Shown: positions 5,922 through 60,935 of the stretch, piece by piece
Layout: each line of letters starts with the position of its first letter
Numbering within the stretch: the stretch's first letter is position 1
NCBI RefSeq assembly: GCF_000708285.2
Contig: NZ_JAUG01000010.1
Location: 1 to 64,000, forward strand
DNA length: 64,000 nucleotides
Source of the DNA: Pedobacter borealis DSM 19626
GTDB taxonomy: Bacteria > Bacteroidota > Bacteroidia > Sphingobacteriales > Sphingobacteriaceae
Direction of reading: 5' to 3'
Made by a program: the position numbers and the translations under genes
Notes under the pieces: model-generated
The model's input: only the letters and a program-made list of their open reading frames with translations
Databases searched by the model: none
What the model was told of the DNA's origin: nothing

Positions 5922-5939
5922 TCAGGTCTTGCTAAATAG

Positions 5940-6002
5940 CCCTGATTGAAGTGAAAAGACCGCAAGCGAGGCACGAGTGCGGACTTGCAACGGAAAGCAG
6001 GA
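5940..6002 (+). repeat. Structured dispersed repeat, copy B
   Basis: The outer arms are CCTG (5941-5944) and CAGG (5998-6001). The conserved blocks are GAAGTGAAAA and GCAACGGAAAG. The inner stem is AAGACCGCA (5956-5964) with TGCGGACTT (5978-5986), eight of nine positions paired. The same layout is seen in copies A, C, D and E. Confidence 0.65.
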
Positions 6003-6060
6003 CTGAAGCAGCCGACAGGCAGTAACATTGCGCTCCAAAACCTAATGAAATTTTCAACTT

Positions 6061-6139: not shown

Positions 6140-6607
6140 ATGAGTTTTTACAACTTCGAAAATACCGACCCTGAAGAAGAGGATATCCATTATATGAAAT
6201 TGGCTTTGGAAGAAGCAAAAAAAGCTTTGGCTGATGATGAAATTCCAATCGGCGCGATAGTGGTTAGTAAAAACAGGATTATTGGCCGTGGCTACAATTT
6301 AACGGAGCGCTTTAATGATGTTACTGCGCATGCTGAAATGCAGGCTTTTACCTCTGCAGCGCAAACGATAGGCGGCAAATATTTAAGGGATTGTACCTTA
6401 TATGTAACCATCGAGCCTTGTGTAATGTGTGCCGGTGCAAGTTATTGGACACAGATTGGCCGCATTGTGTATGGTGCCAGGGAAGAAAAAAGAGGCTTTA
6501 TATCCAAAAACGCGAATCTGCTGCATCCCAAAACGATATTGAAAGGAGGGATAATGGCAGAGGAATGTGCATTATTGATGAGGGATTTTTTTGCAAAGAA
6601 AAGATGA
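6140..6607 (+). CDS. tadA: tRNA-specific adenosine deaminase (TadA family)
   Basis: A 155-residue zinc deaminase of the cytidine/deoxycytidylate family. H64-A-E66 (zinc ligand and catalytic glutamate) and P93-C94-V-M-C97 (zinc cysteines, in IEPCVMCAGA) are both present. The flanking NLTERFNDVTAHAEMQA and YGAREEKRG are typical of TadA, which makes inosine at the wobble position of tRNA-Arg(ACG). A nucleoside (guanine) deaminase cannot be fully excluded, but the gene is the usual TadA length and type. The start at 6140 sits four bases after a -7 element. An internal ATG (M19) is the alternative. Confidence 0.88.
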   Translation: MSFYNFENTDPEEEDIHYMKLALEEAKKALADDEIPIGAIVVSKNRIIGRGYNLTERFNDVTAHAEMQAFTSAAQTIGGKYLRDCTLYVTIEPCVMCAGASYWTQIGRIVYGAREEKRGFISKNANLLHPKTILKGGIMAEECALLMRDFFAKKR

Positions 6608-6610
6608 GTT

Positions 6611-6679
6611 AATGGCTCATGGTTTATAGTTCATAGGCAAGTGGGCTATCAACTATAAACCATGAACCATTGACCAATT
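6611..6679 (+). terminator. tadA terminator built from 7-nt repeat arms
   Basis: AATGGCTCATGG (6611-6622) continuing to 6631 pairs over 21 positions, with one mismatch, with 6651-6671, followed shortly by a T-run. Each arm is itself a 7-nt periodic array: ATGGCTC, ATGGTTT, ATAGTTC, ATAGGCA on the left, and CTATCAA, CTATAAA, CCATGAA, CCATTGA on the right. The array starts just after the tadA stop. Confidence 0.7.
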
Positions 6680-6805
6680 TTTTTTATTATCCTACTATGG
6701 CTATCGTCCTGAACCTTACAGCTTTTAAATCCTCCCAGCTTTACAACAACTGAACAGAAAACGATTTGATGATAATAACATGAACAAATCTTAACGTTCT
6801 AATGT

Positions 6806-12020: not shown

Positions 12021-12374
12021 ATGGGAAAGCTTGTAGAAGAATTTAATGGCTATCGTGAAAAAATGAACGATAGAATTATGGAGACAGCGAATACAAATAT
12101 TAAACGATTTTTTGCGCTCGATACAACCTCCTATGCTGATGGAGCCTTAGATGTTAAAACGAAAGAGATGTTAGGGCTGGTCGCCTCGATGGTTTTGCGT
12201 TGTGATGATTGCATTAAATACCATTTGGGCAAATGTTTCGATGCAGGAGTAAATCATGATGAGATGAACGAAATTTTCATGATCGCCAATCTTGTAGGCG
12301 GTAGTATTGTAATTCCGCATTACAGGAGAGCGGTGGAGTATTGGGATGAGTTGAGTTTGGAGGCGGGAGTTTAG
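12021..12374 (+). CDS. Carboxymuconolactone decarboxylase / AhpD-like protein
   Basis: A 117-residue all-helical protein of the CMD/AhpD superfamily. The redox motif C61-D-D-C64 with H68 (CDDCIKYHLG) is the AhpD-type thiol active site, suggesting a peroxidase-linked or disulfide-reducing role. The body (TKEMLGLVASMVLRCDDCIKYH, then HDEMNEIFMIANLVGG) follows the family closely. The last few codons and the TAG stop lie inside a 7-nt repeat array, so the C-terminal LEAGV is repeat-derived. Substrate unknown. Confidence 0.8.
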   Translation: MGKLVEEFNGYREKMNDRIMETANTNIKRFFALDTTSYADGALDVKTKEMLGLVASMVLRCDDCIKYHLGKCFDAGVNHDEMNEIFMIANLVGGSIVIPHYRRAVEYWDELSLEAGV

Positions 12375-12384
12375 AGTTGGGAGT
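12357..12384 (+). repeat. 7-nt periodic array across the stop codon of the AhpD-like gene
   Basis: TTGGAGG, CGGGAGT, TTAGAGT, TGGGAGT: four heptads in phase with consensus NNGGAGT. The TAG stop (12372-12374) is inside the third unit. More decayed units seem to continue to about 12430. Confidence 0.6.
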
Positions 12385-12477
12385 TTCCTTGCATGTCCCA
12401 GATTGGAACTGTGAGTTTTTAGAGTGGGAATTCTTAAAATCACTAAATAATGCAATTGAATGTTCTTATATTTAATC

Positions 12478-12892: not shown

Positions 12893-13483
12893 ATGCCAAC
12901 TCAAAACTCCCATCCCCAAACTCCCAACTCGATAATCCGCTGCAGCTGGGCAGGCTCCGATCCACTTTATATCAAATACCACGATGAAGAATGGGGAAAG
13001 CCTGTTTATGATGATAAAATTTTATTCGAATTCCTGATTCTCGAAGGTGCGCAGGCTGGCTTAAGCTGGATTACTATTCTCAGAAGGCGCGAAAACTATC
13101 GTAAGGCCTTCGCCGATTTTGAGGTTAACAAAGTAGCTGCTTTTACCGAAAAAGATGTAGAGCGGCTGATGAACGATGAAGGTATTATCCGCAATCGTTT
13201 AAAAGTTAACGGAGCCATTACCAACGCTAAACTGTTTATCGAAATCCAGAAAGAATTTGGCAGTTTTTCTAAATACATGTGGGCTTTTGTTCCAGGTGGC
13301 AAACCGATCCAAAATCACATCGAAAAAATGAGCGATGTTCCTCCACGAACTGAACTTTCCGATCAGATTAGTAAAGACATGAAAAAACGTGGCTTCAAAT
13401 TTTTCGGCACCACCATCTGTTATGCACATATGCAGGCAACCGGAATGGTTAACGATCATTTATTAAACTGCTGCGCAAGATAA
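12893..13483 (+). CDS. tag: DNA-3-methyladenine glycosylase I
   Basis: A base-excision repair enzyme that removes 3-methyladenine. The zinc-snap residues are in place: cysteine in RCSWAGSDPLY, histidine in KYHDEEWG, and histidine and cysteine in VNDHLLNCC. EFLILEGAQAGLSWITIL and the GFKFFGTTICYAHMQA segment are family hallmarks. E. coli Tag begins essentially at the RCGW segment; here about 13 residues precede it and are encoded by a 7-nt repeat array. I use the ATG at 12893; an ATG at 12866 would add nine more repeat-coded residues. Confidence 0.9.
   Translation: MPTQNSHPQTPNSIIRCSWAGSDPLYIKYHDEEWGKPVYDDKILFEFLILEGAQAGLSWITILRRRENYRKAFADFEVNKVAAFTEKDVERLMNDEGIIRNRLKVNGAITNAKLFIEIQKEFGSFSKYMWAFVPGGKPIQNHIEKMSDVPPRTELSDQISKDMKKRGFKFFGTTICYAHMQATGMVNDHLLNCCAR
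12898..12932. repeat. 7-nt periodic array coding the N-terminus of Tag
   Basis: AACTCAA, AACTCCC, ATCCCCA, AACTCCC, AACTCGA: five heptads in exact phase. Related but out-of-phase units (GACTCCA, AGCGCCA) extend left to about 12868. Confidence 0.7.
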
Positions 13484-20223: not shown

Positions 20224-20258
20224 AATAGTATCAAGATTTGAGTCTCGAGTAGCAAGAT
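20224..20258. repeat. 7-nt periodic array between ybaB and the UPF0173 gene
   Basis: AATAGTA, TCAAGAT, TTGAGTC, TCGAGTA, GCAAGAT: five heptads in phase, sharing AG(A/T) at a fixed position. They sit just upstream of the UPF0173 start. Confidence 0.6.
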
Positions 20259-30810: not shown

Positions 30811-30845
30811 TTCAGTTAACAGTTGGCCATTTTCGGTTGACAGTA
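30811..30845 (+). repeat. 7-nt periodic array directly after a stop codon
   Basis: TTCAGTT, AACAGTT, GGCCATT, TTCGGTT, GACAGTA: five heptads in perfect phase (consensus NNCAGTT), beginning with the first base after the TAG of the NlpC/P60 gene. Confidence 0.75.
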
Positions 30846-36250: not shown

Positions 36251-36700
36251 GTGCGCCCGGCACGGGCGCAAACTCTAGGGTGGAAGTCCCGAACGCGCCT
36301 TGATAGTGGGAAGCGTTAACTTAAGGCAAGGGTGTCCTCTGTGAGGAGGAATCTGAAGGAAGCCGGCGGTAAATCTCCGGCCTGACGAACAGGAAGCGAA
36401 TTAGGCAGTTGGATGTGGGTGAGTTTGCATAACAAAACAAAGCCCTAAACTATCCGAAACATCCTGCTGTATATTCGACAGGTATATGGAGAGAAAGTTT
36501 GCGTTCTTACCCGGGGAGATCTGCCGGGCCGTTGCCGGAGGGAGATGCGCCTCCCGAAGGAACAAGGTTCTGTAGCGATACATAACTGGTCCCGCAGAAG
36601 TCAGCAGAGGCCATAGTACTTTTTTTTTTTTTAGAAAGGAAGGGCTGAACATTAAACGTCCGAGTAGTACTACCGGAAATGGGATTACCGTAAAGAAAGC
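36251..36700 (+). mobile_element. Group II intron fragment, 5' part only
   Basis: It starts with the conserved 5' end GTGCGCCCGG, then CTCTAGGGTGGAAGTCCCG and TTAAGGCAAGGGTGTCCTC, GAAGGAAGCCGGCGG and, near the end, GAAGTCAGCAGAGGCCATAG and GAAGGGCTGAAC. These are domain I-III and early domain IV landmarks of bacterial group II introns. The reverse transcriptase ORF and domains V and VI are missing. The 3' limit is uncertain (about 36660-36750). A run of 13 T (36620-36632) breaks the domain IV region. The intron begins two bases after an intrinsic terminator, the site used by class C introns. Confidence 0.8.
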
Positions 36701-39779: not shown

Positions 39780-41453
39780 CTATCCTCTACCACCTCTTGA
39801 TGGTCTTCCTCCTTCAGAGCCGCTTCTTTCACCACCTCTTTGTTGCTGTTGTTGTGGTGCTTCCGTTCTTCTTTGTTCTTGTCTTTGTTGCTGCTGCTGT
39901 ACTCTTTGTTGTTGAGCCTGGGCATCACGCTGTGCGCGTTCCTGCTGTTGTTGCTGCGCTTGTTGAGTGCGTTGCTGCTGTGCCTGAGCATCGCGTTGCG
40001 CCCTTTCCTGTTGCTGTGCCTGAGCCTGCTGCGCACGTTGTTGTTGCATCTGCTCATTTCTTTGCTGTTGCATCTGTGCGTCACGTTGAGTCCTTTCCTG
40101 TTGTTGGGCCTGGGCTTGTTGTGCACGTTGCTGTTGCATCTGCTCATTACGTTGTTGCTGTCCCTGAGCATCACGTTGCGTACGCTGTTGTTGAAATTGC
40201 TCGTTACGCTGTGCCCTTTGTTGCTCCATTTGAGCCGCACGTTGTTGTTGGTCTGCCTGACCACGTTGCTGTGTTTGAGCATCGCGCTGTGTACGTTGCT
40301 GATCTTGGCTCATACGGTCTTGCTGTGAACGCTGCTGTCTCATCTGCTCCAAACGTTGCTGATCTTGACCACGGTTTACGTTTTCCTGTCCGTTTCTTCC
40401 GTCTATACCATTGGTATTGCCACGACTAACACGTCCGTTAGCATCTCTATTATAAACTTCACCTCTGTTATTAGGCTGATTATTATTATCTCTGCCTATA
40501 ATGCCGTTGTTCCTATCGGATTGCCCGGTACGGTTATCTCCTCTCGATCCAAAACGGTTATCGTTATTATTGCTATTACCGCCTCTTTGATCGCGATTGG
40601 TATAACCTTCATTCCTTCCACCCCTGCTAATGCCAGCATTACCTTGCTCAAATTTTCTAGGTGCAGCACTACGGTTATCAGCATTACGCTCTGGTCTAGG
40701 TCTGTAAATAGATACTTCCCTGCTATTAATCCTGCTTGCACCTGGCCTAGAACCTTGCGCATATCTATAAACGGTTACATCTCTATTGGTTGCACGTCTG
40801 ATATCTTCTACCCTTGGGCCACCATAATAGCTCCTTCTGTTATAAACATAAGTATTATTAATAATGGTGGTATTGCGGATATATACATTATTGCGCCCGT
40901 AATCATATCTTGGGAAAGTATTGATATAAATATTACGTTGTGGAATAAAGTTCCAGCAAAATTCTGGCACAGAATAACGACGGCCAAAGCTCAGATTTAT
41001 ACTGATACTTGGCGCCATTGGAGCCCATCCGTAATAACCATCGCCGCTTCTCCAATCTACCCAGGCTGGTCCCCAATTGGTATCAGGTAACCAGATCCAT
41101 TGTCTGTAACTGTTAATTACCCAACGACCATAGTGGAAAGGTGCCCAGCCCCAATCATAATTGGAAACCCAGGTATTACCATATTCGGTCATTGCCCAAC
41201 GTCCGTTTGTATAATATGGACGAAATTCGCTTTGATCTACATCAGGGCGCCAAACATATCCATATTGAGGGTCTTGTATCCAGGTACCATAAGGCGAAAG
41301 TTCATCATAAAAAGTCTGTAAAGAAACATTGCCAGTGCTGTAACCATCATCCTGGTAATCGTTTTGATAGTCTTGTGCCCTGACAAGGGTTGTGGTTCCG
41401 GCAAGGAGCGCAAAGAGCCCCAGCACAAGTGCCGTAGATTTCAGTGTTTTCAT
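39780..41453 (-). CDS. DUF6600-type exported protein with long Gln/Arg-rich tail
   Basis: A 557-residue protein with a signal peptide (ending TTLVRAQ). Residues about 45-190 are rich in Trp/Tyr with SLQTFYDELSPYGTWIQDP, YTNGRWAMTEYGNTWVS, WGWAPFHYGRW and GYYGWAPM, the pattern of DUF6600 proteins. Residues about 250-365 are Arg/Asn/Gly-rich, and about 370-545 consist of near-repeats such as QQQRAQQAQAQQQERAQRDA, predicted as a charged, Gln-rich helix. It ends in an RGG-like RPSRGGRG. Envelope-associated; function unknown. Long open frames in other phases here are composition artefacts. Confidence 0.8.
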   Translation of the reverse strand: MKTLKSTALVLGLFALLAGTTTLVRAQDYQNDYQDDGYSTGNVSLQTFYDELSPYGTWIQDPQYGYVWRPDVDQSEFRPYYTNGRWAMTEYGNTWVSNYDWGWAPFHYGRWVINSYRQWIWLPDTNWGPAWVDWRSGDGYYGWAPMAPSISINLSFGRRYSVPEFCWNFIPQRNIYINTFPRYDYGRNNVYIRNTTIINNTYVYNRRSYYGGPRVEDIRRATNRDVTVYRYAQGSRPGASRINSREVSIYRPRPERNADNRSAAPRKFEQGNAGISRGGRNEGYTNRDQRGGNSNNNDNRFGSRGDNRTGQSDRNNGIIGRDNNNQPNNRGEVYNRDANGRVSRGNTNGIDGRNGQENVNRGQDQQRLEQMRQQRSQQDRMSQDQQRTQRDAQTQQRGQADQQQRAAQMEQQRAQRNEQFQQQRTQRDAQGQQQRNEQMQQQRAQQAQAQQQERTQRDAQMQQQRNEQMQQQRAQQAQAQQQERAQRDAQAQQQRTQQAQQQQQERAQRDAQAQQQRVQQQQQRQEQRRTEAPQQQQQRGGERSGSEGGRPSRGGRG

Positions 41454-48214: not shown

Positions 48215-48291
48215 ACTCCAAACCCTCAACTCCAAACGCCCGACTCAAGATAAATCGACTCATGACTCCGAACTAAAGACTCCGGACTTAA
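48215..48291 (-). repeat. Eleven in-phase heptads directly after the rph stop codon
   Basis: ACTCCAA, ACCCTCA, ACTCCAA, ACGCCCG, ACTCAAG, ATAAATC, GACTCAT, GACTCCG, AACTAAA, GACTCCG, GACTTAA: 77 bases in exact 7-nt phase (plus-strand reading). The array ends at the base next to the stop codon of the minus-strand gene. This is the longest of the 7-nt arrays in the window. Confidence 0.8.
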
Positions 48292-50919
<2,628 letters not shown>

Positions 50920-57076: not shown

Positions 57077-57207
57077 GTTCGTTGATTCGGTAGTTGTCAT
57101 TGGTTTATTTGGTTAATTGTATAAACTGGTTAGTCGGTTAACTGTAATGGCAAAGCCTTAAAACTTTCGATTTTTGCTAATGACACGCTCAACCCGAGCG
57201 CTAAACT

Positions 57208-57249
57208 GACTAAAGACTTCGGACTAAGAACTCTCGACTGAGGACTAAA
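57208..57249 (-). repeat. Six in-phase heptads after a stop codon
   Basis: GACTAAA, GACTTCG, GACTAAG, AACTCTC, GACTGAG, GACTAAA (plus-strand reading), ending one base short of the stop codon of the minus-strand gene at 57251. G/T-rich, weaker 7-nt phasing also follows the rnc stop (57077-57118). Confidence 0.75.
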
Positions 57250-57250
57250 A

Positions 57251-57961
57251 CTATTTCCCTTTCCCTAACGTATCGGTAAATTTCTTCGAAGATTCTTTAA
57301 TGTATTTAATGTAATCGTAGCTGTTCCAATGTTCTGCCTTATCAAATTCCGGACGACAGTTTAACATGTATTTCTCTAAAGTATCACCTCTTAGTTCGGT
57401 ATTGTTTTTAATGATACTCTGATTGAAGTATACATCAATTTGCGATTGTTTAATTTCATTGTCGGCATACCTGCCAAATCTTCGTGCATTTTTAGGATCA
57501 GTGCCAAATAAGTTATATAGTGCATTTAACGGACTGAATATAGCAGACAAAACGGTTGTTTTACCCCCATTATATACACCCTTATTCTTAAATTCGCGTT
57601 TAATTTCGTTCAGATCCTCTTTTTTGGTATTCCCCCTAATGGTAACATCGGCTAGCGTGGTACTTCCTCTAACCAGGTAAATGACCAGATCTTTTTCGCT
57701 GTTTACCACCACACGCTGATCGATCAGGTCACGTTTAATTACCAACAATGTATCGCCAATTCTGGCTTTTAACTGAAACATACCGATATCATTACTGCCC
57801 ACGCCAATTCCCGTACGCAGGTTGGTGATTTCGGATAATGCAATTCTGATATTCGAACCTTTTTCGATCAACACACCTTTTACAATAAAATCCTGTGCCT
57901 TTGCGATGAAGCTGATTGAGGTAAAAACAAATAGTATAACGGCAAATTTAAAGTTTTTCAT
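57251..57961 (-). CDS. Exported carboxypeptidase-regulatory-like domain protein, paralogue 1
   Basis: A 236-residue protein with a signal peptide (ending SFIAKAQ). Residues about 22-110 form a CarboxypepD_reg-like beta-sandwich (DFIVKGVLIEKGSNIRIALS, VGSNDIGMFQLKARIGDTLL). The rest is helical with basic patches. It is the second copy of a tandem pair, six bases downstream of its paralogue. The first 110 residues are nearly the same in both and the C-terminal halves diverge. Related domains sit at the N-termini of TonB-dependent transporters, but none is present here. Confidence 0.75.
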   Translation of the reverse strand: MKNFKFAVILFVFTSISFIAKAQDFIVKGVLIEKGSNIRIALSEITNLRTGIGVGSNDIGMFQLKARIGDTLLVIKRDLIDQRVVVNSEKDLVIYLVRGSTTLADVTIRGNTKKEDLNEIKREFKNKGVYNGGKTTVLSAIFSPLNALYNLFGTDPKNARRFGRYADNEIKQSQIDVYFNQSIIKNNTELRGDTLEKYMLNCRPEFDKAEHWNSYDYIKYIKESSKKFTDTLGKGK

Positions 57962-60013: not shown

Positions 60014-60889
60014 ATGATAAAATCCATGACAGGATACGGCTTAGCAACAGCCGATTATGCAAATGCGAAGTATAGTGTCGAAATCAAATCGCTCAACAGT
60101 AAATTCCTGGAGCTGAATTTAAAATATCCTAAAGCTTTTTCTGATAAAGAGCTGATCTTGCGCAACATTTGCAGTAAAGACATCGAAAGAGGAAAAGTAA
60201 GTTTAAGCATCAATGTAGAACGCACCAACGGTGAAGTTACGGGCGCTACCATTAATACGGTCTTATTAAGCCACTACTACAAACAGCTTATTGCCGTTAA
60301 CAACGAATTGGGTGCCGATAGCAGTAACTTATTGCAAACAGCATTAACTTTTCCTGATGTAATCAGTTACAAGGAAGAAAGTGTAAGTGAGGATGAGTGG
60401 AACCATTTGTTTCAGATTTTCACATCGGCTTTGGCCAATTTCAATAAATTCAGAGAAGATGAAGGCTCGGTTTTAAAGGCCGATTTAGAACTGAGAATTA
60501 AAAATATCCTTTCTTATTTCAAATCTGTTGAAGAATTAGAGCCTAAAAGAATCACCGCAATCCGCGATAAATTTACCCAGTTTTTAGACGATGCTGTAGG
60601 CAAAGTAAATATCGATCAGAACCGTTTCGAGCAGGAATTGATCTATTACATTGATAAAATAGACATTACCGAAGAAAAAACACGTTTAAAAAGCCATTGC
60701 GATTATTTCTTACAAACTTTAGCAAGCAAAGAAGCAAACGGCAAAAAAATGGGTTTCATTTCTCAGGAAATTGGAAGAGAAATTAATACCATGGGCGCTA
60801 AAGCAAATGATGCCCAGATGCAACAATTTGTTGTAGGTATGAAAGAAGAGTTAGAAAAGATAAAAGAACAATTACTGAATGTGTTGTAG
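60014..60889 (+). CDS. yicC: YicC/YloC family endoribonuclease
   Basis: A 291-residue protein of the YicC family, RNA-clamping endoribonucleases. The start IKSMTGYGLATADY is the family signature (MTGYG), then LNSKFLELNLKYP and, at the C-terminus, ANGKKMGFISQEIGREINTM and KEELEKIKEQLLNVL. It is placed just upstream of gmk, the usual order. The start at 60014 is used although the frame opens at TTG 60008, because that TTG belongs to the -7 element. The stop codon begins a 7-nt repeat array. Confidence 0.92.
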   Translation: MIKSMTGYGLATADYANAKYSVEIKSLNSKFLELNLKYPKAFSDKELILRNICSKDIERGKVSLSINVERTNGEVTGATINTVLLSHYYKQLIAVNNELGADSSNLLQTALTFPDVISYKEESVSEDEWNHLFQIFTSALANFNKFREDEGSVLKADLELRIKNILSYFKSVEELEPKRITAIRDKFTQFLDDAVGKVNIDQNRFEQELIYYIDKIDITEEKTRLKSHCDYFLQTLASKEANGKKMGFISQEIGREINTMGAKANDAQMQQFVVGMKEELEKIKEQLLNVL

Positions 60890-60935
60890 CGTTAGGCGGA
60901 AAGCCATAAGCGCTTAACGCCAGACGCCAATCGCA
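60887..60935 (+). repeat. Seven in-phase heptads beginning at the yicC stop codon
   Basis: TAGCGTT, AGGCGGA, AAGCCAT, AAGCGCT, TAACGCC, AGACGCC, AATCGCA: seven units with consensus NARCGCN. The TAG stop is the first three bases of the first unit. Confidence 0.75.

What the first reader, a model, noticed from the sequence alone, without database searches (positions are those of the whole stretch)
60887..60935. Degenerate arrays with an exact 7-nt period and locus-specific sequence, mostly starting at stop codons
At least eight spacers carry runs of heptads in strict phase, each locus with its own consensus: NARCGCN at 60887-60935 (7 units, the first containing the yicC TAG), NNCAGTT at 30811-30845 (5 units from the base after TAG), GACTNNN at 48215-48291 (11 units ending beside the rph stop) and 57208-57249 (6 units), NNGGAGT at 12357-12384 (stop codon inside), AACTCNN at 12898-12932, both arms of the tadA hairpin at 6612-6673, and 20224-20258. 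The period is conserved but the sequence is not, which is hard to explain by copying one repeat. Cyanobacterial STRR heptanucleotide repeats are the nearest known parallel. A process that adds or copies seven bases at a time near 3' ends of genes, or a protein reading RNA in 7-nt steps, would give this pattern.
Basis: seen in the sequence. Interest (0 to 1): 0.8.

Follow-up and report, generated by a model that had tools for sequence, protein, structure and literature searches.

The report
Seven-base ladders after bacterial stop codons
In a group of Pedobacter soil bacteria, roughly one gene end in seven (among ends with room for it) carries a run of loosely repeated seven-base units that starts at the stop codon, runs in the direction of the gene and gains or loses whole units; similar repeats are known from Xanthomonas and Nostoc, but this many-sequence, stop-anchored version is new and its cause is not known.

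Summary
The genome is a Pedobacter. In 44 loci from one Pedobacter clade, period-7 arrays in spacers exceed dinucleotide shuffles 66-fold; other periods from 4 to 16 stay below 10-fold, except the harmonic 14. The other 36 Pedobacter loci show no period-7 peak. Arrays sit just after stop codons (64 of 472 gene ends, 1.7 expected). They run in the sense of the upstream gene (AGTC arrays 53 of 74 within 25 nt of a sense stop; the reverse, GACT, 0 of 73). TAG stops are enriched five-fold. Indels inside arrays peak at 7, 14 and 21 nt. Each locus keeps a 3-5-nt core (AGTC, AAGG, AAAG, CAGTT, AGCG) beside a free triplet. Cores recur between loci, but triplet order does not, so arrays are not block copies. 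Some arrays are the 5' arm of a stem-loop; most have no detectable partner, and several precede a separate ordinary terminator. Best reading: 3'-UTR heptad arrays that grow and shrink by 7-nt slippage from the stop codon, with weak constraint on the core. Nearest known kind: the G-rich heptamer repeats of Xanthomonas and Nostoc. New variant of a known kind; why seven bases remains open.

The parts
60887..60935 (+). Heptad array (core GCG then CGC) starting with the TAG stop of yicC; folds as one stem-loop before gmk
   Evidence: Orthologous spacer carries at least three other, unrelated heptad structures in related species and is 12-36 nt without a hairpin in most other Pedobacter
57205..57250 (-). 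AGTC array in the sense of the gene at 57251-57961 (-), starting at its TAG stop; partner gene RNase III is convergent
   Evidence: 28 of 45 orthologous ends of this gene carry an array, with 29 distinct array starts
48215..48291 (-). AGTC array (11 units) directly after the TAA stop of the PPDK-domain gene 48292-50907 (-)
30811..30845 (+). CAGTT array directly after the TAG stop of an NlpC/P60 gene; followed by a separate inverted repeat with a T run
   Evidence: score alone is not significant in the window (p 0.175)
12347..12392 (+). GGAGT array that spans the TAG stop (12372-12374) of a carboxymuconolactone decarboxylase-family gene
6606..6678 (+). tadA 3' stem-loop whose two arms are both heptad arrays
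   Evidence: (dG -42.5 kcal/mol for 6590-6700)
12898..12932 (.). AACTC array, 46 nt after one stop and just before the glycosylase domain start; exception to the stop rule

Best explanation
These are 3'-untranslated heptad arrays. A 7-nt stretch that includes or directly follows the stop codon (often TAG plus the next bases) is multiplied by slipped-strand replication in whole 7-nt steps. Growth is tolerated on the downstream side only, so arrays begin at the stop and read in the direction of the gene. Units then diverge; the 3-5-nt core changes about half as fast as the triplet, either because it matters at the RNA or DNA level or because it is the microhomology that keeps slippage in register. 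Where a complementary array follows, the two form a stem-loop of 4-bp steps and 3-nt internal loops, and at yicC that stem is maintained. Shown: period, position, orientation, 7-nt indels, clade restriction, core recurrence without block copying. Inferred: slippage as the cause, permissiveness of the 3' side, constraint on the core. Not explained: why seven, and why neighbouring triplets differ.
For: Period 7 only, with harmonic 14. 64 of 472 gene ends with an array, 1.7 expected. TAG stop at 37 of 63 array ends against 86 of 406 others (odds 5.3, p 4e-9), and odds 4.9, p 3e-13 in relatives. Stop bases fit the array in phase 0.43 against 0.20-0.30 off phase, while the coding sequence upstream stays near background. 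Orientation 53 of 74 against 0 of 73 for AGTC/GACT, 13 of 23 against 0 of 22 for AAGG/CCTT. Indels in arrays: 20 of 7 nt, 8 of 14, 4 of 21, against 2, 0 and 2 outside arrays, including loss or gain of one AGTCCGA unit and a 14-nt change in (GACTAAT)n. Long perfect arrays of GACTAAT show recent expansion. Triplet order not shared between same-core loci: 3 against 3.4 expected. Core against free columns 0.13 against 0.25 divergence in a symmetric test.
Against: Simple duplication predicts that neighbouring units resemble each other; in degenerate arrays their triplets are less alike than after shuffling unit order (pooled z -6.4). Same-core arrays at many unrelated loci need more than local slippage. 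Presence of an array is kept at the same gene ends while its sequence is replaced (yicC 32 of 42 species with 21 distinct starts), which looks like function. Stop codon and array are in phase in only about a third of arrays (inferred). No polymerase or repair feature of the clade was identified.
Confidence: 0.5

Rival explanations
1. R-loop-assisted growth: nascent RNA is naked just after the stop codon because ribosomes leave it. G-rich, C-poor transcripts re-anneal to the template there, and the displaced strand promotes expansion of repeats in that orientation.
For: Arrays are G-rich and C-poor in the sense strand: G 0.305, C 0.146, against 0.170 and 0.168 after other stops; relatives 0.261 and 0.161. 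Explains position and strand together. Xanthomonas heptamers are G-rich and downstream of ORFs on the coding strand (PMC4692102).
Against: No R-loop data. One sampled genome, G201, has arrays that are not G-rich. Does not give seven.
Confidence: 0.2
2. A protein or ribonucleoprotein binds the 3' UTR with a 7-nt repeat distance, and arrays are its multivalent binding sites.
For: Strict spacing, sense orientation, core retained better than triplet, array presence conserved at certain gene ends with changed sequence. All main cores contain AG.
Against: Many different cores and none universal beyond AG. Arrays missing from much of the same genus. No candidate protein identified.
Confidence: 0.15
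3. The arrays are transcription terminators or mRNA-stabilising 3' stem-loops, and heptads are the way their stems grow.
For: Same-core arrays within 60 nt are always ordered 5' arm then 3' arm (28 against 0, orthologues included). The yicC stem shows 92.8% paired cells and a covariation score reached by 1 of 500 shuffles.
Against: Only 12 of 57 testable arrays have a significantly complementary downstream arm. Folding z-scores do not differ between ends with and without arrays. Several arrays precede a separate inverted repeat with a T run, for example after 30845. The yicC-gmk pair lacks any hairpin in most other Pedobacter.
Confidence: 0.12
4. REP-like mobile hairpins moved by RAYT (Y1) transposases.
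For: All 18 Pedobacter genomes with at least one GACT-array hit have a Y1_Tnp gene; 13 of 17 without a hit have none (about 2e-6 by hand, uncorrected for kinship).
Against: The Y1 genes examined are flanked by palindromes of their own or by none, not by heptad arrays. Same-core arrays do not share triplet order. Arrays have no fixed length or tag.
Confidence: 0.05

Closest known systems
GGGAATC / GGGGA(C/T)T heptamer repeats of Xanthomonas and Nostoc (Rehm et al. 2015, PMC4692102)
   Same: Tandem heptamers, partly degenerate; intergenic; mostly within 50 bp downstream of ORFs on the coding strand, some overlapping the stop codon; inverted pairs in convergent orientation; same gene neighbourhood kept while length and sequence vary; not tied to mobile elements
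   Different: There one G-rich, G-quadruplex-capable core per genome; here several cores side by side, AGTC arrays that have no G tracts, a strong TAG bias, and replacement of one core by another at the same gene end. Their Anabaena set prefers the non-coding strand
TAACTGA direct repeats (MacGregor 2015, PMC4679880)
   Same: Heptamer direct repeats in intergenic regions, including a few Bacteroidetes; indels in 7-nt increments between close strains
   Different: One fixed sequence, mostly just upstream of start codons in the Beggiatoaceae studied; here degenerate units after stops
STRR heptanucleotide repeats of cyanobacteria
   Same: Three tandem heptanucleotides reported in Calothrix, as cited in PMC4692102
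   Different: Position relative to stops and degenerate structure not compared here
REP elements and REPtrons (PMC3733652)
   Same: Extragenic, mostly downstream of genes, stem-loops, opposed pairs
   Different: 20-40-bp palindromes of fixed sequence with GTAG or CGTC tag, linked to RAYT genes for the GTAG class; here 7-nt units of variable number without tag or linked gene

Membership tests
Heptamer repeats of the Xanthomonas/Nostoc kind | Tandem 7-nt units in intergenic DNA | tested here: met
Heptamer repeats of the Xanthomonas/Nostoc kind | Downstream of the stop within 50 bp on the coding strand | tested here: met
   compared
Heptamer repeats of the Xanthomonas/Nostoc kind | Inverted pairs in convergent orientation | tested here: met
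   28 ordered pairs, none in the opposite order; same order in two other genera
Heptamer repeats of the Xanthomonas/Nostoc kind | G-tract core able to form G-quadruplexes | tested here: not met
   Main cores AGTC, CAGTT, AAAG, AAGG lack GGG; TTTAGGG arrays are rare
TAACTGA repeats | Fixed heptamer, mostly upstream of start codons | tested here: not met
GTAG REPs with RAYT | RAYT genes flanked by the repeat | tested here: not met
GTAG REPs with RAYT | Fixed 20-40-bp palindrome with a tag at one end | tested here: not met
Intrinsic terminators | Stem-loop in most members | tested here: not met
   12 of 57 arrays with a complementary arm; T run examined only by eye
Known structured RNAs (Rfam 15) | Match over the curated score at an array | tested here: not met
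   no match overlaps the listed arrays
Sequence-specific RNA-binding protein sites | A partner protein that binds | not testable with these tools
   Needs binding experiments

The most novel reading that the evidence does not exclude
A clade-specific machinery acts at stop codons on the transcribed strand and either writes or selects units of exactly seven bases: it keeps a short AG-containing core, leaves the triplet free, avoids equal neighbours, and swaps cores at the same gene end over evolution, as expected of a multivalent 7-nt-spaced 3'-UTR code or an untemplated addition process.
Probability: 0.15. Interest if true: 0.88.

Novelty: new variant of a known kind. Interest (0 to 1): 0.62.

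Why it matters
It turns a vague statement (heptamers are over-represented in bacteria) into a testable case. Here is a large set of loci, oriented to genes and anchored at stops, that is present in one clade of a genus and nearly absent from its sister species, with AGTC arrays that cannot be explained by G-quadruplexes. That makes the old question of why seven open to genetics, and it shows that bacterial 3' untranslated regions can turn over completely in sequence while keeping an architecture.

Tried and rejected
Rfam: no match at the listed arrays. Backup stop codons in all frames: the base before AGTC is T in only about 27% of units (letter counts), so not pursued. Rho sites: considered and dropped because arrays are C-poor in the sense strand and AAGG/AAAG cores hold no C. 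Internal pairing of triplets in register: not found for GACT hairpins (0.32 against 0.40 between loci). Neighbouring triplets as reverse complements: no signal. RAYT transposases: correlated in presence, but their flanks carry other repeats. A first general test of core against free columns showed little difference; later tests showed 2- to 4-fold, of which one search is biased upwards because arrays were defined by the core. A first gap scan with linear gap costs was too insensitive. Paper searches found no account of these arrays in Pedobacter; the library lacks most subscription journals.

Full report
Identity. The window is G000:C10:1-64000 of a 5.5-Mb draft genome. Its RNase III protein is 100% identical to that of Pedobacter sp. 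ISL-64 and Bi126, and the best 80 loci in genome contigs are nearly all named Pedobacter.

Is it there? Yes. The listed stretches read as heptads. In window spacers period 7 gives 94 windows over threshold against 10.7 expected; other periods from 4 to 14 give 9-46 against 9-12. In 464 kb of the genome period 7 gives 824 against 30. In 44 loci of the closest Pedobacter species the ratio is 66, next highest period 14 at 31 and all others below 10; in 36 loci of other Pedobacter it is 6.5, no higher than several other periods. GACTNNN x4 is found 108 times in the genome with 0 for the reversed pattern, and in only part of the genus. Taken one by one, 20224-20258 is not significant and 30811-30845 is weak.

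What do the arrays look like? Most have a 3-5-nt core and a free remainder. Cores recur: AGTC/GACT, AAGG/CCTT, AAAG/CTTT, CAGTT/AACTG, AGCG. Within degenerate arrays the free triplets of neighbours are less alike than after shuffling unit order (pooled z -6.4). Arrays with the same core at different loci share no triplet order beyond chance (3 against 3.4 for GACT), so they are not block copies, apart from a few perfect satellites such as (GACTATG)n.

Where are they? Of 472 gene ends with at least 45 nt of spacer, 64 carry an array within 20 nt of the stop, 1.7 expected from shuffles. AGTC arrays start within 25 nt after a sense stop in 53 of 74 cases, 16 of them as TAGTC where stop and core overlap; GACT arrays in 0 of 73. 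AAGG 13 of 23, CCTT 0 of 22; AAAG 14 of 50, CTTT 3 of 49 (orthologues included). TAG is the stop in 37 of 63 array ends against 86 of 406 others (p 4e-9), and 65 of 107 against 149 of 619 in relatives (p 3e-13). The array phase predicts the stop bases 43% of the time against 20-30% off phase, and does not continue into the coding sequence. The arrays are G-rich and C-poor in the sense strand.

How do they change? At the yicC end, related species carry at least four unrelated heptad structures, while most other Pedobacter have a 12-36-nt spacer without hairpin. Arrays occur at 32 of 42 yicC ends and 28 of 45 ends of the neighbour of RNase III, with 21 and 29 distinct starts; the matching spacers in other Pedobacter are 22 and 7 nt long (medians). 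Indels in heptad context peak at 7, 14 and 21 nt (20, 8 and 4 events; neighbours 6 and 8 nt have 2 and 6; outside arrays 2, 0 and 2). Examples against P. ginsenosidimutans (genome G011, identified by a contig of 320,397 bases) show single-unit loss or gain. Core columns diverge half as fast as free ones in a symmetric test (0.13 against 0.25).

Stem-loops. Same-core arrays within 60 nt are always 5' arm then 3' arm, and in two other genera the order in the hit list is the same. The AAAG/CTTT element at yicC keeps a stem over 16 species: 92.8% paired cells, four pairs with changes on both sides, covariation score reached by 1 of 500 shuffles; core identity 0.85-0.89 against 0.55-0.63 for the triplets. 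But only 12 of 57 testable arrays have a significant complementary arm, array ends do not fold better than others, and several arrays are followed by a separate inverted repeat with a T run. Stem formation is therefore a frequent secondary feature, not the definition.

Beyond Pedobacter. Heptads with species-specific cores are patchy over the phylum: a CTTT pattern occurs in 37 of 198 genomes. In four genomes chosen for that pattern period 7 stands 9.5- to 38-fold over shuffles, in one of them together with period 8 (20-fold), and array ends at stops number 7 of 104, 6 of 84, 6 of 102 and 1 of 94. The TAG bias is not clear there, and in a small locus set not every array lay at a stop.

Mechanism. 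Whole-unit changes and perfect arrays point to slippage in 7-nt steps. The stop codon as first unit in many arrays, and the stop as the upstream border, fit growth on the side where nothing is coded. This alone does not explain recurrent cores, unlike neighbours or persistence at the same ends. R-loop help, a 7-nt reader, and constraint on structure remain possible and are listed with tests. The literature found offers, for heptamers in general, only the idea of polymerase slippage set by the size of its active site (cited in PMC4692102).

Comparison. The heptamer repeats of Xanthomonas and Nostoc share position, strand and inverted pairing. They differ by a single G-rich core. The Pedobacter AGTC arrays show that G-quadruplexes are not needed for this arrangement. 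TAACTGA repeats and REPs fail on sequence, position or linked gene.

Limits. Genes are mechanical ORFs of at least 80-100 codons; many relatives' spacers are orthologous and not independent; about 15% of the genome was read; no expression data exist here.

Noticed in passing
G000 C13:69299, C37:23352, C38:8473, C10:74715, C7:53608, C20:27036 (L221-L227): Y1 (IS200/RAYT-type) transposase genes; two long-type ones (L225, L227) are flanked by clusters of their own palindromes, as in REPtrons, and Y1 presence tracks heptad arrays across 35 Pedobacter genomes
   Followed up: partly
own genome, for example after arrays in L153, L159, L161, L169: Many AGTC arrays are followed by stretches such as GATTAACCGATTAACC or CAATTTAAACAATTAACC with a period near 8; period 8 is also over-represented
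   Followed up: no
C1:118340-118414 and C1:117976-118030 of the own genome; L168:16561: Near-perfect (TTTAGGG)n arrays, the plant telomere sequence, right after a TAG stop in L168
   Followed up: no
window 36335-36645: Two Rfam group II intron D1-D4 matches (RF02001, RF01998) next to each other on the + strand
   Followed up: no
window 5934-6008: Flavo-1 RNA match (RF01705); a weak period-7 stretch lies inside it at 5987
   Followed up: no
window 39970-40181: 90-nt tandem repeat within the coding sequence of a DUF6600 protein (39780-41453, -)
   Followed up: no
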